Positions 38,655-62,227 of a stretch of 64,000 nucleotides of DNA are shown here, in pieces. The translations under genes were made by a program, and so were the position numbers. The DNA is from Cinnamomum chago. Lineage: Eukaryota > Streptophyta > Magnoliopsida > Laurales > Lauraceae. Numbering within the stretch: the stretch's first letter is position 1; each line of letters starts with the position of its first letter. The stretch spans positions 32,658,001 through 32,722,000 of the forward strand of contig CP142451.1 of NCBI GenBank assembly GCA_038049695.1, in the 5' to 3' direction. Below the pieces are notes generated by a model, which searched no databases, was not told where the DNA came from, and saw only the letters and a list, made by a program, of their open reading frames with translations.

Positions 38655-38659
38655 GTTTT

Positions 38660-41222
38660 TGATGGACCGCGCCCCTCCGTTCCTCCTCCGCTGCCATCCG
38701 CCCCGGTCTGTCGGGGTCCGGAAGGAGGGAGAGGGAAGAAAGAAAGGCGGGTATCAACATTTTGTGGATATGCCAGATTTTCTTTTCTACTTGGAATTTA
38801 GAGTAGTGATCCGGAGATTCGCCTTCACAAGTAGAAAGGAAATCAACTTTTTCCTAACTTTCCATTGCACACATATTTTAAAGAAAAGAGACAAGTTTGT
38901 TTTGAATGCCGTGAGAGGCGATTTTCTTTGTTTGCCGCGAAAGGCGATTTTGGTGCCGTGAAAGGCGATTTTGCCGTGAAAGGCGGTTTACAAATCTCAT
39001 CAATAATGAAAAGACAACAAATGTGAATTTTGTGTCTCTTTAAGAAAAAATACAATACAATAGAAAAGAAAGAAATGGAATCTAACTTTTCATGCGATTG
39101 TGGGGGGACCCGTTCAGATCGACGGTCGCGAGTCATGTATGGACTCCGCCATCGTCCTTCAGATGAGAACTTTGATGCTTGATTTCTTGGCTTGGCTCCA
39201 ACCTCAGATTTTTAGAGGATAAGGACCAAGGTAAGGTCCTATATCCGGTAAAAAGCCGAGTAGATGGGCTGAAAAGCCGCATCTAGCCATGTTGGATAGA
39301 AGGAGAGGTGGCCTTGGGGGGGGGGGGGGGGCAGGGGCTTTGATCACCTTGTAGTGCTTGTTGCAGTAGAGTTTTCTTCAATAGAGGAGAGTTTGTTGCA
39401 GAGGTTCTGGATTTTTCTTGGATTTTTCGGAGAGTTTTTGGATAATTTTTCCCTGGCCCCCCTTTTCCTTGGAATGGCCTCCTATTTATAGGCATTTGGT
39501 AGCCATTTAGGAGAGTTTATGAGCATTTATGGTATTAATGCTCATGATGGGAGGAGTTACAAGTTTTTAATTTCTTGATTTGGTAACTCCTTTTTCCTTG
39601 AATTTGATTGGCCGGTGGAGGATAATGGGCATTTAGTTGCCTTTAATCTCCATAATGAGGGGAGTTTCATGGTTTTAATGCCATGAATACTTGGATTTGT
39701 AACTCCCATTCGCTTGCTTTTGATTGGGCCGTCCAAGATAATGAGTTAATGACTGTAATAAGTTGCCATAAACAAGTCAATTAACAGCATTAAATGGTCT
39801 CCCGGTCGCTTGAAGAGTCACGGGCTGCGCCGCGTCCTTTGGAATTCTTTTGGCGATGATCATCAATGGATCTTCATGTTGATCGACATCGGATGATCAT
39901 GCAATTTCAGACTTCGATTAATATCAACAAGCCGGCGACATCTGTCCAGTCGATTTCTCGATCGGTCGGGCAGAAAGTGCATTTTCTTGATCGGTCGGTT
40001 GAAAATTTTGAGGTGTCGGATGATGATTCCATGATTCCGGTGGCGGATCCACGATGTCGATGAAGATCGACGGATTTCATGCTAAAAAAATCATAATTTG
40101 GAAAAATCACAGGGGCCAATCAACTCGGGACGCGAAAGATACCCGAAAAACGGGGTTTTTGAGCGAGGTCCGGCGACCATGGGGTTTGTGCCCCATGGTC
40201 GGCCGCCTTCCGGTCGCCTTTTCTTCTTCGTTTTTCGTCGTTTTTCGCTTCTGTTTTCTCCTGCATTTTTCTTGGAATTTCCTCTCATTTATTGGCTGAA
40301 TTTCCCTCAAGAAAACCTGACGGGAAGCCGTGCAAATCGGATTGCAAAGTTTCCCATTTTCTGAAAAGCCGAAGACTTTGCTGTGGAGAACTCCCGATTT
40401 TTTGTCAAGCGTCGAAACTAGGTCAAACGATGTCGGAATGACCTGAAATTCGACGTGTAGCTTCTTGAGCAGTAGACAAGACCAACCATAGGCTTTTGTT
40501 CAGGTTTTGAAGCCGCTTGGGGTCCCGCAAACGCTTGACTTGATTTCACCGCGAGGGAAATGTCGAGCTTTGACTTGTGGTCAAACGATGTCTGATTGAC
40601 CTGAAATTCGACGTGTGACTCCCTCATCAGTAGATAAGACCAACCATAGGCTTTTGTTTGAGTTTTGAAGCTGTTTGGGGTCATGCAAACGCTTGCCTTT
40701 ATTTCACCGCGAGGGAAATGCCGAGCTTTGACTTCTGGTCAAACGATGTCCGATTGACCTGAAATTCGATGGGGAGCCTACTGGAGTCATTTTGAGATGA
40801 TCCACAAGCTCCGAATTGGGTGCCATAGTCCCGGGGTGCTCTGCTGCCGGTAGGCTTGATTTTGTTGCTCGAGAGTTGATGGAGGGTCAAACGGTGTCGG
40901 TTTGACTTGAAACTTGACATGTAGCCTTTCGGAGGTATTTTGAGACCATCCGTAGGCTCTGATCGAAGATTTGGGGTCTTCGACACTGTCGCCGCCGGGA
41001 GCTGCTGCTTAGCTGTTGGAGAAGTGAAGCTAGGCCAAATGATGTCGGAATGACACAAAACTTCATATGTACCTCTCTTTTGGCTGTTTTGAATGACCTT
41101 GCAGTTTTTGTTTGATTCTGACAAGATCTGATGCTTGAAGTGGCGCCTGCCTATTTGGGGTAGGATGCGGCTCCATGTAGCTTTTGGTGTGACGAGGCAA
41201 AGTGACATTTTTTGTGTCAACA
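38660..41222 (-). mobile_element. 3' LTR of the giant element
   Basis: On the minus strand it starts TGTTGACACAAAAAATGTCA and ends CGCGGTCCATCA. A minus-strand TATA box (TATAAATAG, 39482-39490) gives about 1.7 kb of U3. It contains a G run (39316-39331), GCC-TGAAA-GGC motifs (38910-38990), and a subrepeat array at about 40410-41085. Open frames inside it are not genes. Confidence 0.95.
40410..41085 (+). repeat. Subrepeats within the LTR (GGTCAAACGATGTC units)
   Basis: About four to five units of roughly 150-165 bp, each opening with (G)GTCAAACGATGTC..A.TGAC and (C/T)TGAAA.TCGA. The first two are very similar (40418 and 40577 starts) and later ones more diverged. The same array is at about 61410-62085 in the other LTR. 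It lies in U3 and may hold promoter elements. Confidence 0.8.
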
Positions 41223-41236
41223 AATGCCCCCTCGAG
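41223..41236 (-). promoter_or_regulatory. Polypurine tract of the giant element
   Basis: On the minus strand CTCGAGGGGGCATT lies directly before the 3' LTR start, where plus-strand DNA synthesis is primed in LTR elements. Confidence 0.75.
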
Positions 41237-41469
41237 GTACAGCGACGATGGCTTGTGCAGTCGATGTGCCTCGAAGAGAATCTTGAAGAAGAGCTTCTGA
41301 CTTGACCAAGAGTCTTTGAGCATTTTTTTTTTTATAGAGTAGCCTTTTGAGCTTCCAGGGGATTTTATGGTAGTGGGAGGGATCACGTACCATTTCAAGG
41401 CAAAGTTTTGAGAATTGACATTTGGGATTTGGATTTTGGGTTTTGGATTTTTTGGGTTTTGGATTTTTC

Positions 41470-41725: not shown

Positions 41726-42059
41726 TTGGTTTTTTGGTTACTCTTTGGGACAATTTTTTTTGAGTCCATTGGAGTGGTTTTGGATTTTGGAAGAATGTCA
41801 ATTTCAAGGTTTTGGCTTAATTTGGTTCATGAGGTGGGATGGTTTGGATTTTGGAAGCTCATGAGGCTTGGAATTTTTGTATGGCCCAATCAACTCAAAA
41901 GAGGCATGGAACCATTTTTTTTTTTGTATGCTCTTGGTAAAAGGAATTTTGACTAAAAGCCACTTTTAGTGCCTAGGTGGTCAAACTTGGCTCATATGGG
42001 CTAACCCATGGGACCTTAAGCTTTGAAAGATGGCTTAGATCTCACATGGTGTCGTTTTT

Positions 42060-42290
42060 GTAGAGAATATCTAAAAATATCTCCTTTGGGTGGAGAATAT
42101 CTAAAAATATCCTTACTTTGAGAGATTTTCTCAAGTTTCCTTGATTTTGGGAGAGATTCTCTCAAAATATCTTTCTGTGGGAGAGAATATCTATCATTCC
42201 CTTTCTTTTTGGAGAGAATTTCTCAAGGAATCTTTGTTTTAGGAGAGAATATCCCAAGTTTCCTTTTCTTTTGGGAAGGTTGCCAATTTT
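42060..42290 (+). repeat. Tandem repeats of GAGAGAATATCT words upstream of the antisense gene
   Basis: About six units of 35-40 bp (GGAGAGAATATCTAAAAATA..., GGGAGAGATTCTCTCAAAAT..., and so on) end some 50 bp before the TATA box at 42344. Several contain GAGA...TCTC inverted pairs. They could be promoter elements of the antisense gene. Confidence 0.75.
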
Positions 42291-42343
42291 TAGCACTTAC
42301 CTCCTTACTTTTCTCCTCTTTCCTCTTTTGGTTTGCTCTCTTC

Positions 42344-42350
42344 TATAAAA
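42344..42350 (+). promoter_or_regulatory. TATA box of the antisense gene
   Basis: TATAAAA on the plus strand, 120 bp before the ATG at 42464. A CT-rich leader follows (GCAAGGGAGG... to ...CTTCTTCCTCC), like ordinary plant gene leaders. It faces against the retrotransposon's own transcript. Confidence 0.65.
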
Positions 42351-42463
42351 GCAAGGGAGGTGGGATCTCTTGCTCCTATTGCTTTCTTTTTGCAAAAGTC
42401 TTCAAGAGAGCTCCAAGACCTTCTTTTCTTCAAAGATCTTCAAGCTTTTCTTCTTCTTCCTCC

Positions 42464-45400
42464 ATGGCTTCAAGTAAGTTTTTTTTTTCAAGAAATTGCA
42501 TGTAGGAGTAGAAAGAAAGTTTCTTTTTTTTTTCTTTTTTTTTTCTTCTTCTTTTTTTTTTTCACGTGTTTCCTTTTTTTTTTTTTTTCACACGCTTTTT
42601 TTCTTCCTTCTCTTCTTTTTTTTTCTTTTTTTTTTCTTCTTTCCTTTCTTTCTTTTTTTTTTCTTTTGCTCACGGTTTTTTTTTTTTTTTACCGTGTACT
42701 GTTTTTTTTTCTCTCTCTTTTTTTTTTTGCACGTTTTCTTTCTTTCTTTTTTTTTGCTGCTGTACGGCCTGGACCGTATAGCCACGTGGCTTGTGGGCCA
42801 TGGGCTGCGGGCCAACCCAGAATTTTTTTTTTTTTGAATGAGGTTTTCTCTCTCTCTCTCTTTTTTTTTTGCTCACCATGATAATGAGATTTATGCAATC
42901 CAAGATGTTCATGCACATACTTTTTTTTTTTTTTTTTTTTTATGCATCAAGATAGAAAGTTAGAGTCTCTAGGTTAAGCCAACATGAATTTTGACTTAGA
43001 CAAAGTTTGATTGGTTTTGACCAAGTTGGGTTGGAATTGGTCAAACTTTTTGTCAAAGTTTTCCTAGCGTCTAATGCATGATGAATTTTTTTTTTTTTTT
43101 ATGCATGATTTTTGTAAATTGGATTGGGAGCATGATGATGCACACCTGAAAATCTTTTGCAAGTCTTGGGATTTGAAGCTCGCATCAATGTTGAGCTCTT
43201 TCCTAGTCTTGCGGGATTTTGAGGAGCTTTGCAAGTTCTGGAATTTGAAGCTCGCAGCAATGTTGAGCTCTTTTCCGATCTTGCGGAGATTTGAGAAGAC
43301 TAACTTGATCTCGCGGCAATGTTTGAGTTCAAGCTTTCTTTGAGAATCCTTCGTTGATTATGAGCTCGTGGTGATGTTGAACTCATCTTCAGGCTTCCAA
43401 TCTTTTTTCGGGGTGTTTCCCTTTTCTTCGGAATTGCCCCGAAGCTATGCCAAAATTTCGCTAGAATTTTTTTTAGCAAAATTCTGTCATTTTGGTGATT
43501 GATTTTCTTTCTTTTTCTTCCATTGCAGGTAGTTCCTCCAGAACGAACAAGGGTAAGGAGCCCGTTACCGATGCACCTCGTCGATCTGTCAGATCTTCCA
43601 ATGCGGCCGTACAGCAGGCCTGGGAGAAGGTCCAGTATGTGGAGAGAAACTTGGAAGAGTGTGACTCGCTCAACCGAGATGAGATGAGACAGCGACTGAT
43701 CGCTCTCAAGGATGAGGAGTTTTACAAGATTATGGCAAGCAATCGTCCTTGGGTCATGGACGATCAGAGCGTTGTGCCCAAGCCTACCTTTTTCTTTGGT
43801 GATGCAGCCCCTGATGACTCGTCATACCAAAGGAGATGCTTTCAGTTCTCTTACACAGCTGATGGTGAGGAGAGAACCATTTCTACCCGATCGACTTTTG
43901 ATTGTACTATTTCGATCATGAGTCTTTCTCCCACATGCTCTAAGAGAGAAGATCCTCCAAGCTGGGTGAAGAGGACCAATGTGGTCAAGACCGGGGTTTT
44001 TGTTGGCGGTCCTTCTGGTTATGCAGAGAAGTCGCATGTCCGTCTGGACATGTTGATGCCGGCCAGCGGCTACCTAGGACCTGATCATCCATCGGTTGAT
44101 TTGAGACCGGTGGGCCTTGGCATTTTCAGGGGTGATGGCAGCAATTGGGTGAAGCCTTTTCAACTTCGTGGCCGTTTCAGTGTTGACTCGAGCTGGGAGT
44201 CGTGGACTGATCACATCCTGCAGATTGGTGGTGCCAATCTGAAGGAGGCCGAGATTTTTGATGCGGTTCGCGCTTTTAGGCAAACCGTGATTTTCTCCGA
44301 TGAGGCTTTTATGGCCATGCTGGAGTCCTTCGTTCCACAAACCAACACCTTCATTGTTACGAATGGTGAGATTGGTTTTTCTTTGAAGGAGTTGAGTGCC
44401 ATTACCGGGCTGCCCATCCTCGGCAAACTCTATGAGGAATTTATGCCGATCGACAACGTCCTTGAGAAGCGGTCTGAGAAGTTTAGGCTCTTGTACTTTC
44501 AGCTCGTCGCCTTCTATGATTTTTTGAAGGAGAAGGAGGGCTCGAAAGTCCGGTGTAGCAGTTGGAGGAGTTTCAGCTCTTTGTCTCCAAACTTTTTTGG
44601 CGGCGAAGAATCTTCTGAGAGTATGACCCAGGAAGCCAAGGCTAAGAATCCGGGGAAGAAGATTTCCGCCATGCGAGAGAATTTGAAGAACTTTCTCACA
44701 AGTACAGACGCCGTTTGCTCCGACATTGCGCTGCGGAGAAACGTTGCTGCGTACCTCACTTATTGGCTGGGTGAGGCTGTTTTTGCTGGAGGAGACGGAA
44801 CACACATCAGGCCGCATTGTATATTTCCGGCTTGTCAGATGGCGTTCGGAGAGCAGTTGGCTTTGGTGCCTGCTCTTTACTCCTATTTGTGCACCGAACT
44901 GCAGGCTGCTGCTTTTCTGGTTCGGCTTGGGCTTCCTATGAATAGGGTATTTTCAGCCCATATTTTTTATTTGTGGTATGTGTACCACTGTCCTGGCTTC
45001 CACCGTTTGGGCGCTGCTCAGGATGATGACCCTTTTATGATTCAGTTGGCTAGAGGAAAAGTCGTCTCCGAATCTCTTTTGTCTGCCCGTTTGAGAATCC
45101 GATGGTTTAGGGACGTCGAGATGGGGCAGTCTTCAGTAAAGCTTTCTCCAGATTTGCGGAAGAAGGCTTTTGATTTTGGTGTCTCCCGTGATTCCACCAG
45201 GGCAGGATCGGGAAGACACTATTCTTTGACCAACGCAGAGAAGAGGTGGCTTTTAAACATACGTGTTGGCACGATGGTGTACCGCAGACATCTTTTTGTT
45301 GACATCCAGCCGTATGTCCCTTCGCGTTTTGCGTTGCAGTTAGGCTTCTCTCAAGGCGTTGTTGGAGCGCCTTCGAGCATGGTGAAGCGCTTTGGAGGTT

Positions 45401-47403
45401 TGCAGGACGGAAGAAATGCATGGGCCTTCTATAGTGCAGAAGACACCACTGCCATGATTTCCTATCCTGAGTTGCCCACTTTCCGGACTGCTGGCTTCAC
45501 GAAGTGGTTCGTGGAGAGCTTTGCTATGTACCGAGGGCTTTCCAAGAAGGAGCTGAATGTCAAGCAATCTCCTGGGAAGGGTCTTGGTAGATCAGATGGC
45601 GTCCGTCGAGAGGAAGTTTTGTTCTTCCTTTCTGGAGAGAAGCATAGGATAGGCTTTCTCGAGGAACAGGATGTCATCGGATCCGGAGCCGCACAAGAGA
45701 TACATGTTGAGGTCTTGAGACAGCTCGAGGAGGAGGAAGCCGAGATCGACGCTTGGATGCAAGCGGAGCAAATGAAGGCTTCCATAGGGTCCACTGGTAG
45801 GAGCGGGCCGTCTGGTGAGGAGCCAAATGGAAGTCCTGACTTTGACAGTGAGGCAGGTACTTCAAGTAAACCAGCTCGTAGAAAAAAAGAGGAGGAGAGG
45901 ACAGCGTCGCACTGAGAGACGCCACGAAGACTCTCCTGATCTGGAAGTCCCTCCTACCATTGCTGAGGAGGTATCAAGAGATGCTGATGAGCCTCCAGAG
46001 AAGAGGAGTCGTGAATAAGAGACCGCCAATGATGGTATGATTCTCCTTCTTTTCCATTTCCGCTTCCTTTTTTTTTTTTATAAGAGATTTTTTTTTACCT
46101 GTTGTTTTCTTTCTTTTGCAGAAGATGAAAACTTGGTGATGCCCGAGGTTCCTGTCGATGAAGGGGTGATGGATCCAGTTGCGGCATCTGAAGAAGAGTT
46201 GAGGGACTCTGGGGAGGACCCAGAATCTCCACCTGGTATGAGGATGATTTTTTTTTTTGTTTTCTTGTCAGCTGACTTGCCAGAGGGTTCCGACTTCGAG
46301 CCATCTATGGATATGGCTTTTGACGATGCCTCAGATGAGCAAATGGAGACAAAAAGTACTCCACTTATCATGGAAGAAAGTATTTCATAGTGATAATCTT
46401 GACATTGATTTTTTTTTTTTTTTTACAAGATCATATTCATACCTTTTCTTGTGTTTTTGCCAGCAGGTTGTGAAGCAACAGGAGAAGTTCCTTCGTCTTC
46501 CTCAGGGCCAGAGCAGGAGATGCCAGCAGCCGATCCAGAAGTAGGGGCTTCTTCTACCAGTCCCGTCATGGCGGAGGCGGGACTTTGTGGTGATATTGCT
46601 TCTTCAGTGGCTCCGATTGGAAAGAGCCTTTTGATTTCTTCTCCACCACGACCTGACATGGGCAGTCAGCCAACAGATCGTGGTGAATCTTCATCTGGGC
46701 CATCCCTCCAATATGCAAAGAAGGTGTTGAAGAGTGTATTGAGCTCATGGGTTGAAACTCTCTCTTCTGGCCATTTGGAAGCTGATTTTGGCATGGTCAA
46801 GCATGTACAGGACATCCTTGCTGACAGTGCAGAGGTCGGTCTGGACGTTGCAAGTGCCAAGGCCTTTGTTGATGAAGTCATTGCTTTGGGTGACAAATGG
46901 ACTGAGACCAAGAATTTCCCAAGCGGTGACTTCTTCAATGAGATGTTTTTGCAGCCATCCGGTAAGATCAAATCTGAAATGGATGAGATCTCACGGGCTC
47001 GGAAGCAATTTGTTCGGGAGAGGAACGTTACCGAGTTGGCTATCATCGAGCTAACACAGGACCTGCACTGTCTTGATAGGGAGGTCACAAAAGCTAGGCA
47101 GCGCCTTGAGCAATTGCAAGAACAAAGTGCTGCCAAATGGACTGCCATTGTAGAAGCTCGTGCTAAAGAGGGAACTCTGATTCGCCAGGTTGAAGAAGCC
47201 GGTAGCAGCCTCCAGAGAAAGACTCAGGAGTATGAGCAGTGGCAAATTCTCTAGGAAGAGCTTCCTCGGGCCGAAGATGGGTCGCGGCGTTCTGCCGCGT
47301 TTTATGGCAAGATCTTGAAGAAGCGCGGCCTGGAAGCTTTAGAGGCTAAGGCCAAGAGTCTGCTTGAGGAGCTGGATCTTTGGTTGAAGACCATGCTAGA
47401 CTG
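42464..47403 (+). CDS. Antisense gene of the giant element: plant mobile domain protein with coiled-coil tail (multi-exon prediction)
   Basis: A gene on the strand opposite to gag-pol, placed between integrase and the 3' LTR. A very short first exon (42464-42473, in a CCATGGCTTC context) ends at a GTAAGT donor. A pyrimidine-rich intron of 1055 bp follows to the TTGCAG acceptor at 43523-43528. The main exon from 43529 to about 45.9 kb codes for the plant mobile domain. Further short exons bounded by TTTTGCAG- and TTGTCAG-like acceptors are likely at 46.1-46.4 kb, and a coiled-coil-coding exon from about 46467 ends near 47403. Antisense ORFs at this site are known in Tat-lineage elements such as Retand and Grande. 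Function in the element is unknown. It looks nearly whole, perhaps one break. Confidence 0.7.
43529..45915 (+). CDS. Main exon: plant mobile domain (aminotransferase-like PMD)
   Basis: About 790 residues. The N-terminal part has a short basic S/T-rich lead and helices (VERNLEECDSLNRDEMRQRL). The PMD fold spans roughly residues 260-520, counted from the open frame's first ATG at 43492. It includes SFVPQTNTFIVTNGEIGFSL, then KELSAITGLPILGK (the family's TNTF-HxxxGE-TxTLxDVxxLxGLPxxG pattern), then an AYLTYWLGEAVFAGG helix, FGEQLALVPALYSYL, and IFYLWYVYHCPGF. The end is an acidic heptad-rich segment (LRQLEEEEAEIDAWMQAEQM). PMD proteins are found both as host silencing factors (MAIL1/MAIN family) and inside plant transposons. 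I start it at the splice acceptor, not at the upstream ATG at 43492, because that ATG lies in the intron's pyrimidine tract. Confidence 0.82.
46467..47403 (+). CDS. C-terminal part of the antisense gene, coiled coil
   Basis: Begins with a Ser/Pro/Gly-rich low-complexity linker (46467-46690), then a helical region with ARKQFVRERNVTELAIIELT and a long E/K/Q/R-rich coiled coil (REVTKARQRLEQLQEQ; RQVEEAGSSLQRKTQEYEQW), and ends in an alpha-helical K/E/L-rich tail before 47403. This layout, PMD followed by linker and coiled coil, is common for transposon-borne PMD proteins and suggests self-association. It is assigned to the antisense gene by strand, spacing and splice-site context, not by direct evidence. 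Confidence 0.65.
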
Positions 47404-47599
47404 AGCTCTTGATTTATAACAAACTCTTTTCTTCTTTTCTCTCTTCTTCTTTTTTTTGGTATCTCTATGTAAAACATTTTTTGTACTCTATGTACCTTTT
47501 ACTTAAATTCTTTTTGGTGAAAATAAGCAAAGGTTGGGTGAGAATGTTTATTTGAGAATTTTGATCAAAAGGTTGTCATTTTGTGAAAATCTTTTGTCA

Positions 47600-48445
47600 A
47601 AAGGGTTGTTTTGGCATGAAAGCCAGATTTTGCGGCAAAAGCCAGGGTTTTTTTTTTTTTTTTTTGTGATTTGAAAGCCGAATTTCGAGATGGCATGAAA
47701 GCCGAAATTTGGGTTTATGGCATGAGAGCCAAAATTTTGGATGGCGTGGAAGCCGAAATTTTGAGGTGGCATGAAAGCCGATTTTGGTGGCGTGAAAGCC
47801 AAATTTTGGGATGGCATGAGAGCCAAAAAAATTTTGAGATGGCATGAAAGCCGAATTTTGAGATGGCATGAAAGCCGAAATTTGGGTTTATGGCATGAGA
47901 GCCAAAGTTTTGGATGGCGTGGAAGCCGAAATTTTGAGGTGGCATGAAAGCCGATTTTGGTGGCGTGAAAGCCAAATTTTGGGATGGCATGAGAGCCAAA
48001 AAAAATTTGAGATGGCATGAAAGCCAAATTTTGAAATGGCATGAAAGCCGATTTTTTTGGGGTGGCATGACAGCCGGTTTTCGTGGCGTAAAAGCCGATT
48101 TTTTTTTAAAATGGCATGAAAGCCGAGTTTGAGATGGCATGGGAGCCAAAGATTTTTTGTGGCATGAGAGCCAAGATTTGGTTTGTCGCATGAGAGCCGG
48201 TTTTGTTTTTGGTGTAAGAACCAAATTTTGTTTTTGGCACGAAAGCCGAAATTTCTTTTTGGCATGTAAGCCAGATTTTTTGTTTTTGGCATGAAAGCCA
48301 GATTTTTTTTTTGAAAACCGAGTTTTGTTTTGTTGGCATGGAAGCCGAATTTTGATTTTTGGCATGAAAGCCGGATTTTTTATTTTTTGGCGTGAAAGCC
48401 GGATTTTTGGCATGGAAGCCGGGTTTTTTGGCGTGAAAGCCAAGT
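47600..48445. repeat. Array of about 25-bp hairpin units GGC-ATGAAA-GCC
   Basis: About 30 units, each with GGC(A/G)TG(A/G)(A/G)AGCC followed by AAATTTTG-type spacers. GGC and GCC can pair around a six-base loop in nearly all units. A higher-order repeat of about 173 bp is visible (47711 onward against 47884 onward). Minus-strand frames stay open through it because of the repeat, not because of coding. It lies in the 3' untranslated part of the element, where Ogre/Tat elements are known to carry tandem repeats that can seed satellites. Confidence 0.88.
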
Positions 48446-48461
48446 TTTTGGTTTTCAAAAA

Positions 48462-48863
48462 TGCAAGTATCGATTAAAAGTCACCTCCCTGCTGAATGGT
48501 ATTGCAAGTATCGATGGAATGTCGCCTCCTTGCTCATTCGGTTGCGAGTATCGAAGGAATGTCGCCTCCCCACGGATTTGGGTGCAAGTATCGACTAAGC
48601 GTCGCTTCCCTGCTTTTTTTCTTCAAAAATTTTGTTTTGTGGGTATCGATGGAATGTCGCTTCCCCACGATTTTTGAATTTTGAGGTTTTTTCGAACCTT
48701 TGTTTTGTTTTTTTTGTTTGTTTTGAAATTTGGGTTGTGGATATCAACTGGAACGTTGCGTTTCCACGATTTTTGAAATTTTGGGGTTTTGAAAGTATCG
48801 AATGGGGTTTGCATCCTTCCGATTTTGGGTTTTGCAAGTATCGACTAAACGTCGCTTCCCTGC
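48462..48863. repeat. Array of about 30-base hairpin units GCAAG/GTGGG-TATCGA...TCG-CTTGC/CCCAC
   Basis: Eight units at about 48462, 48503, 48544, 48583, 48639, 48737, 48791 and 48833. Typical units run GCAAG-TAT-CGA-(7 bases)-TCG-CCT-CCTTGC or GTGGG-TAT-CGA-(7)-TCG-CTT-CCCCAC. Outer and inner stems pair in most units, and one unit (48737-48766) changes both sides together (GTGGA...TCCAC and CAA...TTG). Spacers vary in length. See findings. Confidence 0.85.
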
Positions 48864-49239
48864 GGTTTTTGAAAAACCATTTTTTGTTTAAAGACACGAG
48901 GGTCGTAAATTTTGACTCAAAACCATTTTGGTGGTAAAAGTCGGGGTGGACTAGGGCTGAAATCCCTAGGTCCTGATTTTGTTTCAAACCATGAATTTTG
49001 GGTTCAAGGATCAAAAATTTTGGTCAAGTTTGGGAAGAGGCTCCTAAACTTGGATTTTTGGATTTGCTTTTTTTTTTTTTGAACAATGAAACGATGAAAG
49101 AGACATTGTTTTGAGGGGTTTTTTTTTTAGAAATTTCAACAAGAGGATGAAAATTCCAAAAGGAGTGGGTTTGACGAGCAGATACCTAGGAATAGGCTTT
49201 GGCCGTGCAGGCGTCGCTCTGACCCGATGGAAGAAGCCT

Positions 49240-52200
49240 TCAAGGGTAGTACCGCTTCAAGAACTTTCCATTGATGGGCAGCATACATCTGTCACCCTCC
49301 ATGTTTAGAAGAGCGTATGCGCCGTTGGAGAAGACTTTGTCGATGACGAAAGATCCCTCCCATTTTGGTTCAAATTTGCCTTTGGATTTGTTGGCAAAAG
49401 CCATTGGTCTTTTTACTGTAAGAACCAAGTCTCCCTTTTTGTAGGCGCGTTGTCTGACCTTCTTGTCAAAAGATCCTGCCATGCGTGCTTGGTAGAGTTC
49501 AATGCTTTGTAGAGCTTCGAGCCATCTCTCATCAAGGTTATCCAGCTCTTGGAGTCTCAATTTGACATTACTTTCTTGCGTCATGTCATTTTGCAGAGAT
49601 ACCCTTAAGGAAGGAATTTGAACTTCCAAAGGGACAACAGCTTCGCATCCATAGACCAAGGAGAATGGTGTGCTATGGGTTGGTCCTCGAACGGTTGTTC
49701 GATAGGCCCACAAAGCTTCAGGCAGTTTGTCGCCCCAATCTCTTTTGTGACTAGAGACCATTTTCTTGAGGATTTTGCAGAGCGTTTTGTTGAAAGCCTC
49801 TACTAGTCCATTCGCTGCCGGATTGTACGGAGTTGAAGGACAACTTTGGATTTTGTATTTGTCGCAGAACCTGTAGAATCGGTGATCGCGGAACTGTGGT
49901 CCGTTATCATGGACGAAACTTTTAGGTATGCCGAAGCGACAAATTATATTAGTGCGCAAGAATTGAAGGACTGACGAGGTCTTCATTTCGTTGAGCGCGA
50001 ATGCTTCTGACCACTTGGAGAAATAATCCGTAGCAGCGAAAATGAAGTGATGACCTTTGCTTGATGGGGGAGAGATAGGACCTATGATGTCCATACCCCA
50101 GGCTTCAAAAGGCCATGAGATTGCTGTAGGATGTAGCCATTCCGGAGGCATGTGGACATAATCTCCATGAACTTGGCATTGTTGGCAGCGCTTAGCAAAT
50201 TGCATTGCATCAGCCACCATGGTAGGCCAATAATAACCTAACATTTTTATCTGATCGTAGAGCTTAGGCCCAGCCTGATGGGCTCCACAAAGACCAGCAT
50301 GTACTTCTTTGAGTGTTTCCTCAGCCTCTTGTTGTGACAAGTAGCGTAGAAGTACTCCATTGTAGGATTTCTTATAAAGCATTTTTGAAGGAATATCCAA
50401 ATGAAAGTTTGGGGTTTGCCTTTGGATGCTTACCCGCTCTTTTCGATCCTCAGGTAGGATTCCGAACATGATGTAATCAATGAACGGATCCCTCCAGTCA
50501 CCGATCAGAGGTTTAAGGACGGAGATCCGACTTCCAACCACTTGGTGGCATTCAGCAACTGCTTGATGTGTGTTGAGAGGAGGGAGAATCCTTTTTTGAC
50601 ACACTGTAACTTGCATGTTTTCCCCTTCTTGGATTGCCATAGACGCAGCAAGTCCAGCCAAGGCATCTGCACGAATGTTTTCACCTCTGAGGATGTGGGT
50701 GATGTGACAGATGTCGAACTTTTGTCGAAGCGATTGTGCCTTGTTGTAGTAAGGCAACAGATCGGGCTTCCTGACTTCAAATTTCTGATTCATCTGGTTG
50801 ACGATCAGTTGAGAGTCTCCAAAAGCTTCCAGCGTAGTGATGCCGGATTCAAGGGCGAGCTCCAATCCTACGATGAGGGCTTGGTACTCAGCTGCATTGT
50901 TTGAACATGGTTCCAGTAGCGAGAATGCATGTGGAATTATGTATTTGTCGGGACTAACAAAGAGAATGCCAATTCCCGATATTTGATTTCCATTTTCATT
51001 TGTCCTGGTTGCGCCATCGAAGTACATGTGCCAGGAAGCATTTGATAAGGAAGTCTCCACACTGTAGACCGGTTCGTCTGGGAGGTCATCCCTGAGTGGA
51101 GAATCTTTAGGCAATGGATGCTCCGCGAGGAAGTCTGCTAGAGCTTGGCCTTTGATTGCTTTTTGTGGTACATACCTAATGTCAAATTGTGACAGGAGGA
51201 TGGACCATTTTGCTAGTCGGGCATTGAGAGAACCTGCTTTTGTGACAAGGACCTTTAGGAGGTTGATCCTCGAAATCAGGTACACTGTGTTGGCTAGCAG
51301 GTAAAGACGCAGTTTTTGTATGGCGAACATCACTGCCAAGCATTCTTTTTCAACTGGAGAGTAGCGATGCTCTGCACCTACCAACATGCGGCTAAGGTAA
51401 TATAGAGCAGCTTCTTTTCCCTCGTCATTCTTTTGTGCGAGTAGAGCGCCTAAAGAACAGTCAAGGGCTCTTGTGTACAAGAGGAATGGTTTTCCAGTTG
51501 TGGGGGCAGCCAACACTGGAGGTTTAGTCAGGTATGACTTGATGTCCTGGAACGCGGCTTCACATTCAGCATCCCAGACAAAATCGACACCTTTCTTCAT
51601 TAACCGAGAGAATGGACGACACTTCCCTGATAGGTTGGAGATGAACCGTCGAATGTATGCCAATCTTCCTTGGAGCCCTTTTAATTGTCTTAGGGTTCTT
51701 GGAGATGGCATTTCTAGGATAGCCTTGACTTTGATGGGGTCAAGCTCTATGCCAGCTTTCCGTACTATGAATCCAAGAAACTTACCCGATGAAACACCGA
51801 AGAAGCATTTGAGGGGATTCATTCGCAGTTTGTGTTTGCGAAGTCGGAGGAAGATTTCTCGAAGATCTTTGAGATGGTCTTCTTTTCTTTTGCTTTTGAC
51901 GGCGAGGTCATCGACATAACATTCGACCATCTTGTGCTGCATATCTTGGAAGATCTTCATCAGAGCCCTCTAATATGTAGCGCCGTCATTCTTCAGACCG
52001 AATGGCATGACAGTGTAGCAATACACGCCAAACGGGGTTCGAAATGCTGTGTGTTTTTCATCTTCAGGATGCATCTTTATCTGATTGTAGCCAGAGAAGC
52101 CATCCATGAATGTCATTCGCTCGAACCCACAGGTGTTGTCGATCATCACCTCCGGTATAGGGAGCGAGAATTCATCTTTTGGGCATGCATTGTTCAGGTC

Positions 52201-53210
52201 TCTGTAATCAATGCAGACCCTGATTTGCCCATTTTTCTTTGTCACGGGGACGATGTTGGCCAACCATTCAGGATGCTGTTCCTCACGGATGAAGCCAACG
52301 CTTTTGAGTTTTTGAACTTCTTGTTCAATTTTGTCCATCACGTCAGGACGGAACCTTCTTTGGCCTTGTTTGACAGGCTTGATATCTTTTTGAAGATTGA
52401 GTTTGTGGACTGCTATTTTGGGGTCTAAGCCAGGCATCTCAGCATAAGACCATGCAAAACAATCAACGAACTCATGAAGAAACGCGATATTCTCGGGTAA
52501 CTCATCATCCTTTATATTCTTGCTTATGAATACAGGACGTGGGTTATCAGGTGTTCCCAAGTCTATCTTTTGAACAGAATCTTCAGTTGGAAGGTTTGAA
52601 GGTGGTTCCTCCACAATATTTTCGGAGGCTTCCAGCCCAACAAAGCCTTCTGGAGTTCCAAAGGTATTTACAGACCACGGCTTTGCTTTTGTCCATGGGT
52701 CTTCTTGATTGGTACTTTTCTCAAGATTTGCTATGAGATGGTCCCAATCACCTGTTGAAACTAAGTCGAAGTAGGGCACTTCTTTTGGAGATGATGGTAC
52801 TTCTGGGCTAGAAAATCGTGTATCCGTATCATCGGTCAATTCCTCTTCATCATCCGAGAAATCATACCAATTGGGTGAGCTTCCTGAATCTTTGACGGGT
52901 GACTCTTTAAAAAGATATCCGGGGAGATCGATGTCTTCATTAATATGAGATGTTGAGGCTTGGTCGGCAAGACGACTTTGCAGCCTTTGTGTCAACTGTG
53001 TCAAGGGAGCGTCAGGATCATACCCCAGCCCATGTGAAGACTTTTCTATGTGGCGGTGGGGTTTCCAACCTTCCAGTTGACTTTTGGTCAGGGTTGGTTC
53101 CAATGGCGTGATAATACCACGGCCACCTCCCAAACCGATTGGGTTCTGAGCGTCGTAGCCCATTTTCTTCATGATAGCTTGTGCCATTGGACTATACAGG
53201 GATAGTTGAG
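49240..53210 (-). mobile_element. pol region of the giant element: RT, RNase H, second RNase H, integrase
   Basis: In element order: reverse transcriptase at about 51510-52470 (IDYRDLNNACPKDEFSLP, FMDGFSGYNQIKM, YVDD box); the gypsy-type RNase H or connection part at about 51230-51510; a second, archaeal-type RNase H at about 50630-51040 (MYFDGATRTNENG, NNAAEYQALIVGL, GDSQLIVNQ), which marks the Tat lineage; integrase at about 49330-50330 with zinc finger, MDIIGPISPP, HDNGPQF and the glutamate helix NGLVEAFNKTL, then a GPY/F-like end. Most of it reads openly; at most one or two breaks. Ogre relatives are known to join protease and RT through splicing of their RNA. Confidence 0.92.
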
Positions 53211-54896
53211 GCATACCTTCGTTTTGGAAAGGTTCAAGCGAAGAATTTGATGAAGAAACTCCCGATTTATGGAAGAAGTTGGCTTTTCTTCTGCTGATGT
53301 TACTGGAACAACGAAGGAAGCAGATGCCGGATCTTCTATGTCAACGGTTGTCTCCATCGGAGTGAGAGCGGGCTGAACTTGTTGATCATCAGCTTGGCTT
53401 GACAATGTGTCGTCTTCTGGCTCTGAGTCCGAATCCGTGTCTTGCAAGATAGACAAGAAGGAGACAGCAAACTTGCCCCCAGCCTTTTGTTTTGTCTTCT
53501 TTGCTTTGGTGGTGATCACCAGAGGCTTTGAAGACTTGAGGGAGACCATGAAGGGAGATTGATTATTCTCTTCGGTTTTGATAGAGGGTTTGTTTTCTTC
53601 CGGTGATTGCTGAGGAGCCTTGCCTTTGTCTTTCTGGAGATTTTCGGCAAAGGGTGTTGTTTCTTCCTCCCTTTCTTCTTTTTCATCTTTGTACATCTGA
53701 GCATCTGTAAAATAGACTTCTTTGCCTTTGAAGGGCTTTTTGTCTGCAAACACTCGATGTATCAAGCCGTCATTGCCAACGAACTTGATGCACTGATGTA
53801 AAGTCGAAGGGACAACACCATTCTCGTGTATCCAGGGGCGTCCGAAAAGGATGTTGTAGCATGAAGGGGTCTTTATTGCATAGACAGTGACCTCGGAGAT
53901 AAGATCACCGATTTGCAACTTGAATCTGATTTTGCCGATCGGCCTTTGAGCGCTGCCATCATATCCAAAGATGGACACAGACGTGTGACTCAGCTTGCTA
54001 GGCGGAATGCCCAGTTCTTCGAGTGCCGAAGTGGAGATGAGGTTGAGTGCAGAACCTGGATCGATCTGGATTCTGCGTACTGGCACCTCTTTGATGTACC
54101 CGGTGAAGTACAGGGGTCGGTTGTGCTTTGTCTCGCCTAGCAGGAGGTCTTCCTCGGTGAAGGCGATGGTTGCACTTGCTGCTTTTTGAACCGAGAGGCA
54201 TTCGATGCAGGATCCCTCAGTTTTCTTCTTTTCTCCTTTTGAGGGAGTTTTTGATTTTTTGACCCTATAGTCCATTTCAATTTGTAGGACTTGTGGGGCA
54301 TGTTTGTCGACATCCGCATCCAGCATTTGTAGTTCTGAAATGAGACTATCACGAGTCTGTGGTGACATTCGTAATAAGTCTAGGATGTGCAGACGTGCAG
54401 GTATGTGTTTGAAGTGCTGAATCAAGTCGTACTTGAAAGCCTCCTTGGGGCCTGCATTTTCATTATTCTTGCCACTAGGGGCGTTTACAGCTTGTTTTCC
54501 CGAAGGATTTACATAAGAAGCAGAAGGTTGGTTGTAGTTTTTGTGGTAATCCCGGCCAGAACGGGTACTTCTACCAACTTCAAGAGCTTCTGGAGAAGGG
54601 TCTTTGTTTGGAAGATCACCCTCGAGATCGAGGGGTTGTTCCTTCTCATTTGCTGAAGATGTCTCTGTGTCAGCATTGCCATCTTCAGTAATTGTGTTGC
54701 ATGGAGCATTTTCCGGGAGCAAGTCCTGAACAGCATCCAGCAACTTTCCTTCTTTATCGAATATTTTGTCGGTCCAGACATCACCGATGAGATCGGGCAT
54801 TTGGGACCAATTGACCGGATTTTCTCTGAAGAAGATTTCACCGGCTGGAATTTCTTCAAGGTGATCAGTCGGAAGAGGTTTGAGTTCCGATGTCAC
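53170..54896 (-). mobile_element. Protease region of the giant element
   Basis: A retropepsin core at about 53790-54100 (IDPGSALNLISTSALEELGI, NILFGRPWIHENG) follows an acidic linker with SGRDYHKNYNQPSASY. After the core comes a charged K/E-rich linker toward RT. The layout, with a long linker on both sides of the protease, matches Tat/Ogre polyproteins. The extent of the part is approximate. Confidence 0.88.
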
Positions 54897-55034: not shown

Positions 55035-57017
55035 CTAACAGCTTTCTTCGTTTTCCGGGGTTACCGGAGGAGATTCTTGTAGATTTTCAGGAACTTCCGG
55101 TGCTGGGTTGTGACGAAGTTGATTGATGCGACCTTGTTCTTGCTCTATAGCAAGGTGCTGCAAGATCCTTGCGTATTCATCGAGATCAGGCACGGGAGCC
55201 AAATCTTCTTCTTCGTCTGCTCCTTGTGGTTCAACATGGCTGGGTTCCACTGGAGTGTTTTCTTGAACAACCTCTTGGTCTTCTTCATCATCGGACCAGG
55301 ATCCTTGCGGCTGTAATGGGTTATACCAGATTACTGGCATAAGATGAGATTCAGGGATCCATTCCTCGTCAGAGAGATATTCTCCTGTTTTGAGGGATTC
55401 TTCCCATTCATCAATGTCACTGGCGGTGTCACTGGACTCGTATCCATCCATGGGGAATCCGACCACCGAGTTGCAAGAGTATGATGCCCCTTGCATAGTT
55501 TCATCTTTGAGGTGTGGTGGCATGAAATCACCAAGAGTGAATTTTCTTGCCGCCTTTGAAGTCTTAGGAGAGGACTCTTCTGTTGTCCCCAGTGAAGCGG
55601 TAGAGGAGGTCTCTGCCTTTTCAGTGACTTCTTGCTTTTTCGGAGCTTTCTCCTGCTGTTTGAGCTTGCGGAGTTGTCTCCTGGCTTGCCTTCGCTGTCG
55701 AGCGGTTGGCTTTGTTTTGACGACCTCCCAATTTTCATCTTCTAGGATATCGGGGTGTACCCATATGGGCTGTCCGTCTGATGTTGGATATGGAACCAAC
55801 TCTTGGGACATTTGGGTCATCTTTATCACCTTGAAGGAAGTAGTGATCTTCTCTTTTGGTGATTTTTGTTTTTGTCCACACGACACCATGTTGACGGAGG
55901 CAGACCCATAGTTCTTGTCGAAGGTAATGACTTCGTTTTTCCACATCTCATTTATCTTCTCTCTCACAACAAAGCATTGATTAAGAGGATGCGAGACCAT
56001 CTGATGGTATGGACAGTACCGAGGATCGTTGGTTTTGCCAACATCGCCCGGTCTTTTGGGGTCAGGCAAGGTGAGTTTACCGTTTGCGAGAAGTGCCCCA
56101 AAAATTTCTTCAACATCTTCATTGAACGGGTATTTCTTCTCTACTCGTTCTTTGAAGGCATCAGAGAGTTCAGGCTTTTTACCTGTAGCTTTGTTTTCAG
56201 CTTTCTTTGGCGGCTGAGGAGCTGACTTGGTTTGCACATTGAGAACCTCTTTTTTCTTTAGCTTTAAGGTTGCAATGGTGGTCGGCTCTTTCTTTGATGA
56301 TTTCTGACTGTTGAGGTCTTTGATCACCGTTTCAGCCTCCATAGAAGCTTCTAGGAGTTCACCTAGGTTTTTTGATTTGTTGCCGATGATCATGGAGCGG
56401 ATTCTTGCTCTCATGTTGTTACGGCAGATGTCGACTAGCGATGCTTGTGGCAATACATCTGAGCATTTGTACGCCATTGCCTTCCACTTGTGAATGAAGT
56501 CATATGTTGACTCACTCTCTCCCTGTTTTAGGCTGCAGAGCTGCGCCATAGTAACAGGATGATCCTCACCTTTGAAGTGGGTTAGGAAGCGTGTCTCCAG
56601 CATGGCCCAATTTTGAATGGAGTCCTCCGGCAAAGTGGAGTACCAATCAAAGGCCGTACCTTTTAGGGTACTTGCAAAGAGGCGGATTTTGAGGGCATCT
56701 TGATCCGCAATAGCTCCCGTCAGGATCTTGAAATGGATGACGTGTTGTCTGGCTGAACCTTTCCCCGTATATGTTTGGAGAGTAGGTTGCTTGAATTTTG
56801 TAGGGAACGGGACCGAGTCCATCCACAAGGGATATGGTGGCTTGATCCCATGCTCCTTTAGTGTATCCTCTTCTTTTGCTTTGGCGAGGATATCGTCAAC
56901 ATCCTTTTTGGTAAGGGCGCGTGACTCACTGTTTTCCGCATTTTCCTCATCGCCTTGATGGCTCGGAGGAGCTTTATTGTTTGGTGGACGTTGGATAGTG
57001 AGAAGGAGGTTTTCCAT
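55035..57017 (-). mobile_element. gag region of the giant element
   Basis: A gag domain (PF03732 type) at about 56300-56870 has WMDSVPFPTKFKQPTLQTYT, GTAFDWYSTLPEDSIQNW and the SLKQGESESTYDFIHKWK helix. A CPYHQMVSHPLNQC zinc-binding box typical of Tat elements follows at about 55965-56010, then basic (RQRRQARRQLRKLKQQEK) and acidic tails. Length of about 660 residues fits the family. Confidence 0.9.
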
Positions 57018-57038: not shown

Positions 57039-58130
57039 TCATTGTTCCAGCTGCTGGATGCGTGCAGCTACGTCATCATGTGGTGGAGGTTGCTCAGCAT
57101 TTGTGACCAAGATGTTCACTCTTCGAGAGTCGAAAGAGGATACAGTCTTGGTGACTGAGCTGGAGCTCATTCTTTTAGATGAAGAGCTCGAGGAGTGATT
57201 ACTCCGGTGTCCTTGACTTGAAGGAGCGGGAGAATCTTCTTGATGTCTTCTTGTTCGAGTGACGCTGCGAGTCACCGGTCGTCTGACATGGATTTTAGTT
57301 GCCGACTTTTGATGTCTTCTGGTTTTTCCAACCATATGGACAACAGCAACTTGATTGGGTCTTTCTTTTTCAACCCATTTTTTGGAGACCTGAAGTGCAG
57401 AATGCTGGGTTCTTTGCTTCTCTAGTCTCTTTTGTCGATATGCCACGCGGCGGCGCATACGACGAGTAATTTGAGCTTCGGTTAGCTCTGGCTGCGCTCT
57501 GGCAATGAAGGACGTAGTCCCTGGTGCGCAGCAGCCGAGCTTGTCTTCTTTGAAGACTGGCAGGGACAAGATCCGGACGCGGTCCTTTGCCTGTCGCAGC
57601 GAAGCCTTGAATTTGGCGAGTTCGGCCCCTGTTGAGAGGAAGGGTCGACTCGCAGGAGTGCAGGCCTTTGCAGGTTCTTGCGGAGGCCTTACGATGCACG
57701 ATTTGATTTTGGGCTTGTAGGAGCAAGCCGGCTCGTGCTGAGTTGGTTTTGTTTGGCGGAGGGTAGGTTTCTCCTCTTTCATGTAAGCAAGAGGGTAGAA
57801 CCGGTTCTCCTTGAGAGGGGCCAGGTATGCTGGCTTTGCAGGTGTTTGTAACCTTCTTTGTTTGGGTGAAGGTCTTGGGGACCAAATCTTTGAGCAGACC
57901 TGGTTTCTTGTAGGTTGAGGCTTCGTGGGGTTACCACGGGCTTCAGATTTTCTGATGGCTGCCTTTGGTGTCGGAGCAGCGACATGTCCGGTGGCAGTTT
58001 TCTGCTTCTTGGCAGTTGCGGTTTCTTCTATGGGAAGTGGGAATGGTCCCGCGACCCGAAGACGATGGTCCGGGGAGTTGAGGTCGACCCGGTGTTCTGG
58101 GAGTCGCCAAGGGTGGTGATGCTTTGGCAA
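57039..58130 (-). mobile_element. Extra ORF before gag (ORF1-like), basic protein
   Basis: About 360 residues, rich in K, R, P and Q, lying directly before gag. It has a Pro/Lys/Thr-rich first half, an arginine-dense central helix (ITRRMRRRVAYRQKRLEKQR) and a Ser-rich end. No domain recognised. Ogre elements are known to carry an ORF1 of unknown role at this place, so position supports the call more than sequence does. Confidence 0.65.
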
Positions 58131-59632: not shown

Positions 59633-59652
59633 GGGTCCCACCGGGTATGCCA
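59633..59652 (-). promoter_or_regulatory. Primer binding site of the giant element
   Basis: On the minus strand TGGCATACCCGGTGGGACCC, three bases after the 5' LTR end. It begins with TGG, complementary to tRNA CCA. I could not match it to a particular plant tRNA from memory. Confidence 0.65.
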
Positions 59653-62222: not shown

Positions 62223-62227
62223 GTTTT

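What the first reader, a model, noticed from the sequence alone, without database searches (positions are those of the whole stretch)
42344..47403. Antisense plant mobile domain gene with its own promoter and intron inside a giant LTR element
The plus strand, opposite to gag-pol, shows a TATA box (42344), a CT-rich leader, an ATG in good context (42464), a consensus GTAAGT donor and a TTGCAG acceptor in matching phase, and a long PMD-coding exon followed by a coiled-coil exon. Antisense ORFs at this place are known in Tat elements, and PMD proteins are also host silencing factors (MAIL1/MAIN). An intron on this strand could not survive in the element's own genomic RNA as an intron, because its splice sites are antisense there. 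The gene is therefore built to be expressed from the DNA copy independently of the LTR, and could oppose or modulate host silencing or the element itself. The role is inference.
Basis: partly seen in the sequence, partly recalled or inferred. Interest (0 to 1): 0.8.

Follow-up and report, generated by a model that had tools for sequence, protein, structure and literature searches.

The report
Spliced antisense gene in a retrotransposon
A giant plant retrotransposon carries, on the strand opposite its own genes, what looks like a separate protein gene with its own promoter and introns; many copies keep these signals and selection protects the protein, so the element seems to need it.

Summary
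The window holds a complete 23.6 kb Ogre/Tat-type LTR retrotransposon on the minus strand. Between pol and the 3' LTR lies a plus-strand gene: TATA box, 10-nt first coding exon, ~1 kb T-rich intron, 2.5 kb exon with a plant mobile domain (PMD; PF10536, E=6.4e-17), two small exons and a coiled-coil exon. The host genome (1.06 Gb, probably Lauraceae) holds 776 exact copies of exon 1 plus donor, and no spliced exon1-exon2 junction within 3 mismatches. In the 30 aligned copies (best protein matches, window included) the donor is kept in 29 and the acceptor in 30, while intron 1 drifts in sequence and length. Between subfamilies the PMD exon has dN/dS 0.155, like pol (0.155-0.204). The window copy is itself broken. 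PMD eORFs in Ogre elements and own-promoter antisense genes are already published. New here, as far as the held library shows, are the conserved multi-exon structure, the selection result, the absence of spliced copies and a swap of the coiled-coil exon at an intron. Splicing and expression are inferred; no RNA was available. The anti-silencing role is a published guess and untested.

The parts
38655..38659 (.). target-site duplication GTTTT, left
   Evidence: identical to 62223-62227
38660..41222 (-). 3' LTR
   Evidence: BLAST pair with the 5' LTR at 96.95%; K2P 0.012 on 2541 gap-free sites
41223..41237 (-). candidate polypurine tract next to the 3' LTR
   Evidence: sequence reading
42040..42343 (+). 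upstream promoter-like region with 31/61-nt repeats holding 5 AATATCT motifs
   Evidence: 5 seen; mean 0.09 in 1000 shuffles, none reached 5; 28 of 30 copies have at least one within 300 nt of the TATA box
42344..42351 (+). TATA box TATAAAAG
   Evidence: TATAAAA in 26 of 30 copies
42464..42473 (+). exon 1 coding part (ATGGCTTCAA, Met-Ala-Ser plus one base)
   Evidence: 29 of 30; 776 exact exon1+donor sites in the genome
42474..43528 (+). intron 1, T-rich, GTAAGT...TTGCAG
   Evidence: 47% T; 859-1055 nt in 30 copies; between subfamilies p-distance 0.15 and 17.5% gaps, against 0.046 and none in exon 2
43529..46034 (+). exon 2: PMD and, in the family, a basic NLS-like tail; frame changes near 45.88 kb in this copy
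   Evidence: frame open to donor 2 in 22 of 30 copies; dN/dS; NLS-like is my reading of the basic stretch
46035..46121 (+). intron 2 (GTATGATT...TTTTGCAG)
   Evidence: donor GT 30 of 30, acceptor AG 30 of 30; not more diverged than exon 2 (p 0.054, 4.6% gaps)
46122..46235 (+). exon 3, acidic linker
   Evidence: 114 nt in 28 of 30 copies
46236..46271 (+). intron 3, 36 nt in this copy, 47-87 in the other 29; may be read through in frame here
46272..46379 (+). exon 4
   Evidence: 108 nt in 29 of 30 copies
46380..46466 (+). intron 4; swap breakpoint at about 46440-46459
46467..47404 (+). exon 5: helical coiled-coil end, stop 47402-47404; premature stop 47252-47254 in this copy
   Evidence: AlphaFold2 helix at residues 170-265 of frame 46454-47251, block mean pLDDT 80-98
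47613..48460 (.). tandem array with 26 dyad motifs [GC][GC]C-RTGRRA-G[GC]C, also 3 in each LTR
49240..51960 (-). end of RT, RNase H, second RNase H (aRH), integrase
51970..53214 (-). start of RT, with a sub-threshold G-patch match; in-frame stop at its end
53169..54896 (-). protease
   Evidence: Asp_protease_2 23.9 bits, just under the 24.3 cut-off
55035..57017 (-). gag
   Evidence: Retrotrans_gag E=2.9e-12
57039..58130 (-). extra ORF upstream of gag, no Pfam match at E up to 1
59633..59652 (-). candidate primer binding site; tRNA not identified
   Evidence: sequence reading
59656..62222 (-). 5' LTR
62223..62227 (.). target-site duplication GTTTT, right

Best explanation
It is an accessory gene of an Ogre-type LTR retrotransposon. 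It lies antisense between pol and the 3' LTR, has its own RNA polymerase II promoter, and is spliced from five coding exons into one protein: PMD, basic NLS-like tail, acidic linker, coiled coil. Shown: the anatomy, its conservation in many copies, and purifying selection on the PMD exon at the level of pol. Inferred: it is transcribed from integrated DNA, and splicing removes the introns from the antisense mRNA while the sense genomic RNA carries them, inverted and unspliced, through retrotransposition. Inferred, and my commitment on role: the protein enters the nucleus, oligomerises through its coiled coil and acts in trans on element or host chromatin, most likely keeping the family expressible by competing with, or redirecting, host MAIN/MAIL-type PMD silencing complexes. 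I put the gene reading at about 0.9 and the anti-silencing role at about 0.4.
For: PMD match. 776 exact exon1+donor sites (410+366, backward-pattern control 0); 508 exact exon-2 24-mers (261+247, control 0); of 63 C1 exon-2 sites compared, 41 have the exact donor upstream on the same strand within 6 kb, 38 of them at 2485-2700 nt, three at 1044, 4491 and 4798, and 22 have none. Donor 29/30 and acceptor 30/30 in copies chosen by PMD protein; acceptor intact in 9 of 12 copies chosen by donor. dN/dS 0.155 between subfamilies, informative sites at codon positions 1/2/3 = 17/18/73; pol, nine comparisons across the same divide, 0.155-0.204. No exon1-exon2 joined sequence within 3 mismatches; 4 hits to an exon2-exon3 join, all with 3 mismatches and none with a PMD in the 3 kb fetched. 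Avocado gene models join the same exons, and P0012 begins MTSSSSSRTNKG against MASSSSSRTN predicted here. LTR and pol pieces beside 5 of 5 other copies checked match the window's element. Helical coiled coil. Precedents: Grande gene23 with its own promoter and nuclear product (as told in PMC7264820); MAIN/MAIL1 silencing (PMC5418596, PMC7156037 passages).
Against: No RNA evidence. The 30 copies were the best of a protein search, so they over-represent intact ones. Of 12 donor-chosen copies, 1 has a changed acceptor, 2 show none within 1.35 kb, 2 lack the TATA box, and 3 of the 10 whose exon 2 was reached have a stop in its first 40 codons. The window copy is broken. Intron 2 and the start of intron 4 are not more diverged than exon 2, and exons 3 and 4 are no better conserved by substitution than intron 2, though they keep their length, so drift and constraint are shown for intron 1 and exon 2 only. 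Exon 5 shows no constraint among recent major-type copies (dN/dS 0.95 at dS 0.0097). Selection does not say what the protein does. In tea, PMD genes (not shown there to be Ogre-borne) give 21-nt phasiRNAs and are little expressed (PMC10673657 passages), which also fits a silencing target.
Confidence: 0.6

Rival explanations
1. The antisense protein serves the retrotransposition cycle directly rather than silencing, for example nuclear import of the pre-integration complex, integration targeting or regulation of the LTR, as accessory proteins of some retroviruses do.
For: Constraint on exon 2 equal to pol; NLS-like tail and coiled coil; proposed for antisense ORFs in PMC7264820 and PMC11963269 (text read).
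Against: Nothing here shows contact with Gag, integrase or the LTR. The PMD relationship to host silencing factors favours a chromatin role, but weakly.
Confidence: 0.3
2. The antisense transcript matters, not the protein: it pairs with genomic RNA and feeds small-RNA control of the family.
For: The gene is complementary to about 5 kb of genomic RNA; dsRNA control is raised in PMC7264820; tea PMD genes give phasiRNAs (PMC10673657 passages).
Against: An RNA-only role does not predict strong codon-position bias, dN/dS 0.155, a reading frame kept up to the splice junction, or drift of intron 1 between invariant splice sites. It could act in addition.
Confidence: 0.08
3. A recently captured host gene or a nested DNA transposon sitting by chance in the element.
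For: PMD occurs in host genes and MULEs (PMC5418596 passages); multi-exon structure is gene-like.
Against: The gene is a family-wide part of the element: 776 donor sites, 508 exon-2 sites, and element LTR and pol pieces beside 5 of 5 copies checked. The three genic-looking PMDs compared (L001-L003) share only 21-28% identity over about 100 aa. Terminal inverted repeats around the gene were not searched for at high sensitivity; one search found no inverted repeat of 100 nt or more in the window.
Confidence: 0.03
4. The introns are an annotation illusion: translation starts inside exon 2 from an unspliced antisense transcript.
For: Exon 2 has an in-frame ATG at 43684 used by some avocado models; introns 2 and 4 show no excess divergence.
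Against: Exon 1 and its donor would have no reason to stay invariant beside an intron with 15% divergence and 17.5% gaps; the GT and AG of all four introns are each kept in 29 or 30 of 30 copies.
Confidence: 0.07

Closest known systems
PMD-encoding eORFs of Ogre (Tat) retrotransposons; Gypsy-only PMD-A1/A2 clades
   Same: Same domain, same lineage traits. PMD reported in 57% of Ogre elements (PMC6317226 section 13); PMD-A clades encoded only by Gypsy elements (PMC5418596 passages).
   Different: The passages read do not describe an own promoter, several introns, a coiled-coil exon in the same gene, selection, or exon swapping. Clade A membership was not tested here.
Maize Grande gene23
   Same: Antisense gene between pol and 3' LTR transcribed from its own upstream promoter; nuclear product (as told in PMC7264820; original paper not read).
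   Different: The parts of PMC7264820 read mention no PMD and no introns for it. PMC11963269 treats Grande as a Retand element.
Retand antisense TRP28 (PF04195) ORFs
   Same: Antisense, pol-3'LTR location, neighbouring tandem arrays in about half (PMC11963269, parts 1-3 of 5 read).
   Different: No TRP28 match here; [quoted passage not shown]
VANC anti-silencing proteins of VANDAL MULEs
   Same: TE-encoded protein; anti-silencing is my hypothesis here; tandem non-coding repeats as possible targets (PMC5735166 passages).
   Different: Different element class and no shared domain shown; anti-silencing is shown for VANC, not for this protein.
Host MAIN/MAIL1 PMD proteins
   Same: PMD domain; they act in TE silencing (PMC5418596, PMC7156037 passages).
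   Different: The element PMD is far diverged from the genic-looking PMDs compared here; no direct comparison with MAIN/MAIL1 was possible.

Membership tests
Plant mobile domain, PF10536 | Pfam score over the curated cut-off | tested here: met
   62.2 bits against 34.9
Ogre lineage of Tat Ty3/gypsy elements | additional RNase H between RNase H and integrase (shared with Retand) | tested here: met
   RT_RNaseH 156-259, RVT_3 320-436, rve 617-714 in one frame; criterion from PMC6317226
Ogre lineage of Tat Ty3/gypsy elements | PMD-bearing eORF (57% of Ogre) | tested here: met
   PMC6317226 section 13
Ogre lineage of Tat Ty3/gypsy elements | very long element and LTRs (non-chromoviruses up to about 24 kb, LTR up to about 5 kb) | tested here: met
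   23.56 kb, LTRs 2563 and 2567 nt
Ogre lineage of Tat Ty3/gypsy elements | RT-RH-INT phylogenetic placement | not tested
   no reference set at hand
Ogre lineage of Tat Ty3/gypsy elements | tRNA-Arg primer binding site | tested here: inconclusive
   candidate PBS read at 59633-59652; tRNA not identified
[quoted passage not shown]
   separate frames seen, splice sites not examined
Retand | antisense TRP28 (PF04195) domain, in 97% of clusters | tested here: not met
   no PF04195 match at E up to 1 in the two large antisense exons
PMD-A clade (Gypsy-encoded) | tree position with PMD-A1/A2 | not testable with these tools
   no reference PMD sequences were obtained; two protein searches returned only avocado models, two unnamed proteins and one mislabelled one
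Spliced protein-coding gene | junction reads in RNA | not testable with these tools
   no RNA data held
Spliced protein-coding gene | conserved splice sites around a drifting intron, protein constraint | tested here: met
   met for intron 1 and exon 2, drift not shown for introns 2 and 4
TE anti-silencing factor (VANC-like in effect) | trans loss of silencing on expression | not testable with these tools
   needs plants

The most novel reading that the evidence does not exclude
The antisense gene encodes a modular, family-specific anti-silencing factor. Its PMD engages or blocks the host MAIN/MAIL-PP7L pathway, and its coiled-coil exon, exchanged between element lineages by recombination inside intron 4 together with the adjoining repeat spacer, sets which elements it acts on through the dyad array (26 sites beside pol, 3 in each LTR). 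The antisense introns let the gene have regulated, spliced expression without losing introns in retrotransposition.
Probability: 0.12. Interest if true: 0.85.

Novelty: new variant of a known kind. Interest (0 to 1): 0.6.

Why it matters
PMD proteins sit on both sides of the plant transposon-silencing conflict, and what the transposon version does is still open in the papers read. Showing that the transposon keeps its PMD under selection as strong as on pol, inside what looks like a spliced gene of its own, makes the question testable: one can look for exact junction reads, localise the protein, and ask whether it touches host PMD complexes. It also shows a general trick: a retroelement can carry an intron-containing gene if the gene is antisense to the genomic RNA.

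Tried and rejected
AlphaFold2 of the PMD exon gave mean pLDDT 34, so no fold search was run. Viral and prokaryote contig collections gave no relative. No solved structure by sequence. Rfam gave one sub-threshold match in the LTR (22.9 bits, gathering 49), ignored. A recent host capture was rejected. The first alignment of loci was spoiled by unreversed minus-strand loci and replaced. A frame error in the exon 5 script was corrected; only the exon 2 value is used. Steinbauerova 2011 is not held; Gomez-Orte 2013 was not looked up.
Full report
What is there. The window lies at C1:32658001-32722000 of a 1.06 Gb, 14-contig plant genome. The nearest named protein relatives of the finding are avocado gene models (the nearest of all, P0001, 95% identical, is unnamed), so the host is probably Lauraceae; this is inference. 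A complete LTR retrotransposon on the minus strand spans 38660-62222, with LTRs of 2563 and 2567 nt, K2P distance 0.012 on 2541 gap-free sites, and the target duplication GTTTT. Its sense frames are an extra ORF, gag, protease, RT, RNase H, a second RNase H before integrase, and integrase. The second RNase H between RNase H and integrase marks the angiosperm Tat clades Ogre and Retand (PMC6317226, section 13 read). The antisense PMD favours Ogre (57% of Ogre elements), and the TRP28 domain typical of Retand is absent from both large antisense exons. RT phylogeny was not done.

The antisense gene. On the plus strand a TATA box at 42344 is followed by ATG at 42464, a 10-nt coding exon, a 1055-nt T-rich intron with GTAAGT and TTGCAG, and a 2.5 kb exon with a PMD. 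Avocado gene models mapped onto the window by tblastn carry the PMD frame on into a basic NLS-like tail, two small acidic exons and a coiled-coil exon ending at 47404, with differences between models in which small exons they use. One model, P0012, begins MTSSSSSRTNKG where the window predicts MASSSSSRTN, that is, the same first exon and junction. How far these models rest on RNA is unknown. The exon 5 model is a long confident helix (residues 170-265 of 46454-47251, block mean pLDDT 80-98).

Test against other copies. A protein search of the own genome scored 57 copies out of 4265 first-look candidates. I aligned the best 30, the window included. TATAAAA is kept in 26, with TATAAGA in 1, CATAAAA in 2 and nothing in 1. 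ATGGCTTCAA|GTAAGT is kept in 25, GTGAGT in 4, and the donor is absent in 1. The acceptor GCAG|GTAGTTC is kept in 30. Donor 2 and acceptor 2 are kept in 30, donor 3, acceptor 3, donor 4 and acceptor 4 each in 29 (acceptor 4 in two types, 24 and 5). Exon 2 has the same length in 27 and an open frame up to donor 2 in 22. These copies were chosen for protein similarity. Starting instead from exon 1 plus donor, 12 copies spread over C1 were fetched, out of the 100 places listed: 9 have the acceptor at 923-1010 nt, 1 has a changed acceptor, 2 have none within reach, 10 have a TATA-like box (9 TATAAAAG, 1 CATAAAAG), and 3 of the 10 whose exon 2 was reached carry a stop in its first 40 codons. Starting from an exon-2 24-mer, 41 of 63 sites on C1 have the exact donor 21-mer within 6 kb upstream, 38 of them at the unspliced distance; one is closer (1044 nt) than splicing would give (about 1645 nt), hence a deletion; two lie 4.5-4.8 kb away; 22 have none. 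I compared 63 of the 64 listed C1 sites, because the donor list stopped at 91.8 Mb. Genome-wide there are 776 exact exon1+donor sites and 508 exact exon-2 sites, with backward-pattern controls of 0.

No spliced copies found. The joined exon1-exon2 26-mer has 0 matches at up to 3 mismatches. The joined exon2-exon3 24-mer has 4, all with 3 mismatches (control 0), none with a PMD-like sequence in the 3 kb fetched around it. The other two junctions were not searched. This is what one expects if only the sense genomic RNA, in which these introns are inverted, is reverse-transcribed.

Selection. Among 27 in-frame copies dN/dS is 0.21. Between L010 and L036 (closest to the window) and the 25 others dN is 0.0221 and dS 0.1428, ratio 0.155. 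Informative sites fall 17, 18 and 73 on codon positions 1, 2 and 3. Intron 1 differs by 15% with 17.5% gaps in the same comparison, exon 2 by 4.6% with none. For pol, nine comparisons of the window, L042 or L046 with L040, L044 or L048 give 0.155-0.204. The antisense protein is thus about as constrained as pol. The search bias towards intact proteins lowers dN somewhat, but I do not think it can make a sixfold gap between dN and dS. Between close relatives the ratios are higher (0.37 for L010-L036 in exon 2; 0.45-0.63 for the window, L042 and L046 in pol), as expected for decay after insertion. Against a simple story: intron 2 (p 0.054, 4.6% gaps) and the shared part of intron 4 (p 0.012) are not more diverged than exon 2, and exons 3 and 4 (p 0.054 and 0.057) are not less diverged than intron 2, though their lengths hold (114 nt in 28 of 30, 108 nt in 29 of 30) while introns 1 and 3 change length.

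A swapped exon. L010 and L015 differ by 0.5-8.7% per 200-nt step from 43450 to 46449 and by 30-39% from there through exon 5, with the break at about 46440-46459 in intron 4. Synonymous distance is 1.26 in exon 5 against 0.136 in exon 2 of the same pair, yet exon 5 stays 51% identical in amino acids with dN/dS near 0.28. The spacer behind it is also diverged (75% over 47180-49018 for L049), and pol is 96.6% identical again from 48918. The simplest reading is recombination, probably template switching, that exchanged the coiled-coil exon with its adjoining spacer at an intron. In 30 copies 24 have the other exon 5 type (21 of these open over 250 codons), 5 the window type and 1 neither; L014, counted with the window type, is itself diverged from it (dS 0.36-0.39). 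Among the 24, dN/dS is 0.95 at very low dS.

This copy is broken. The PMD frame changes near 45.88 kb, an end that P0001 and L012 share; there is a stop at 47252-47254; intron 3 has shrunk to 36 nt; RT has an in-frame stop near 51.97 kb. The family, not this copy, is the functional unit.

How it most likely works. Shown: anatomy, conservation, constraint on exon 2, no spliced DNA copy found. Inferred: transcription from integrated copies by its own promoter, splicing, nuclear entry, oligomerisation. For the role I favour counter-silencing. Host PMD proteins MAIN and MAIL1 act in transposon silencing and interact with PP7L (PMC5418596, PMC7156037 passages), and others have suggested that transposons use their own PMDs against silencing (PMC8616336 passages; PMC5418596 for MULEs). 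That idea is not mine and is untested here. A direct role in the retrotransposition cycle is the main rival. RNA-only action is disfavoured by the protein-level constraint.

What is known and what is new. Known: PMD eORFs in Ogre, Gypsy-only PMD clades, antisense accessory genes with own promoters (Grande gene23, as told in PMC7264820), antisense TRP28 in Retand (PMC11963269). PMC7264820 asks for attention to antisense and spliced transcripts. In the held open-licence library I found no description of a spliced antisense PMD gene (search listings); subscription papers, including Steinbauerova 2011, could not be read, so this is a statement about the searched library only. Papers seen: PMC11963269 parts 1-3 of 5; PMC7264820 parts 1-2 of 3; PMC6317226 section 13 and passages; passages of PMC9289625, PMC7156037, PMC5418596, PMC10673657, PMC8616336, PMC5735166; PMC10398659 search listing only.

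Noticed in passing
window 47613-48460; also 38908-38984 and the matching part of the 5' LTR: A dyad motif [GC][GC]C-RTGRRA-G[GC]C occurs 26 times between the PMD gene and pol and 3 times in each LTR, nowhere else in the element (1 more in the rest of the window). LTR copies have the arms exchanged (GCC..GGC instead of GGC..GCC), so pairing is kept. The sense strand of the array folds as a row of small hairpins, z -10.6 (plus strand -3.8; 20 shuffles each); in the LTR the signal is weak (z -2.2 and -1.2). Arrays of 13-20 sites persist in 4 of 4 other copies looked at, and 1-3 sites in 5 of 5 LTR pieces.
   Followed up: partly
window 42066-42186: Five AATATCT (two of them AAAATATCT, which I recall as the plant evening element) stand just upstream of the TATA box; 28 of 30 copies have at least one. 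Could mean clock-linked expression, or just repeat growth.
   Followed up: partly
intron 4, about 46440-46459: Breakpoint of an exchange that gave related elements different coiled-coil exons.
   Followed up: partly
intron 1, 43149-43412: About 72-nt repeats in intron 1 are used as coding exons by some avocado gene models (P0008, P0018, P0020); a stop occurs in this copy.
   Followed up: no
protein P0002: A PMD protein of this plant family is filed under Yersinia pestis, on a 4.3 kb contig; most likely plant DNA contaminating an assembly.
   Followed up: no
L001, L002, L003 (C10:59.77-59.80 Mb): Three open PMD genes within about 33 kb, 62-84% identical to each other; genic-looking and far from the element PMD.
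   Followed up: partly
G000 C1:61970858-61981328: Four exon1+donor sites within 11 kb on one strand suggest a local duplication of the promoter-exon 1 region.
   Followed up: no
window 1-2199: An end fragment of the same LTR at about 1-167, followed by a different gag-protease-like frame at 163-2199, minus strand (my reading of the translation).
   Followed up: no
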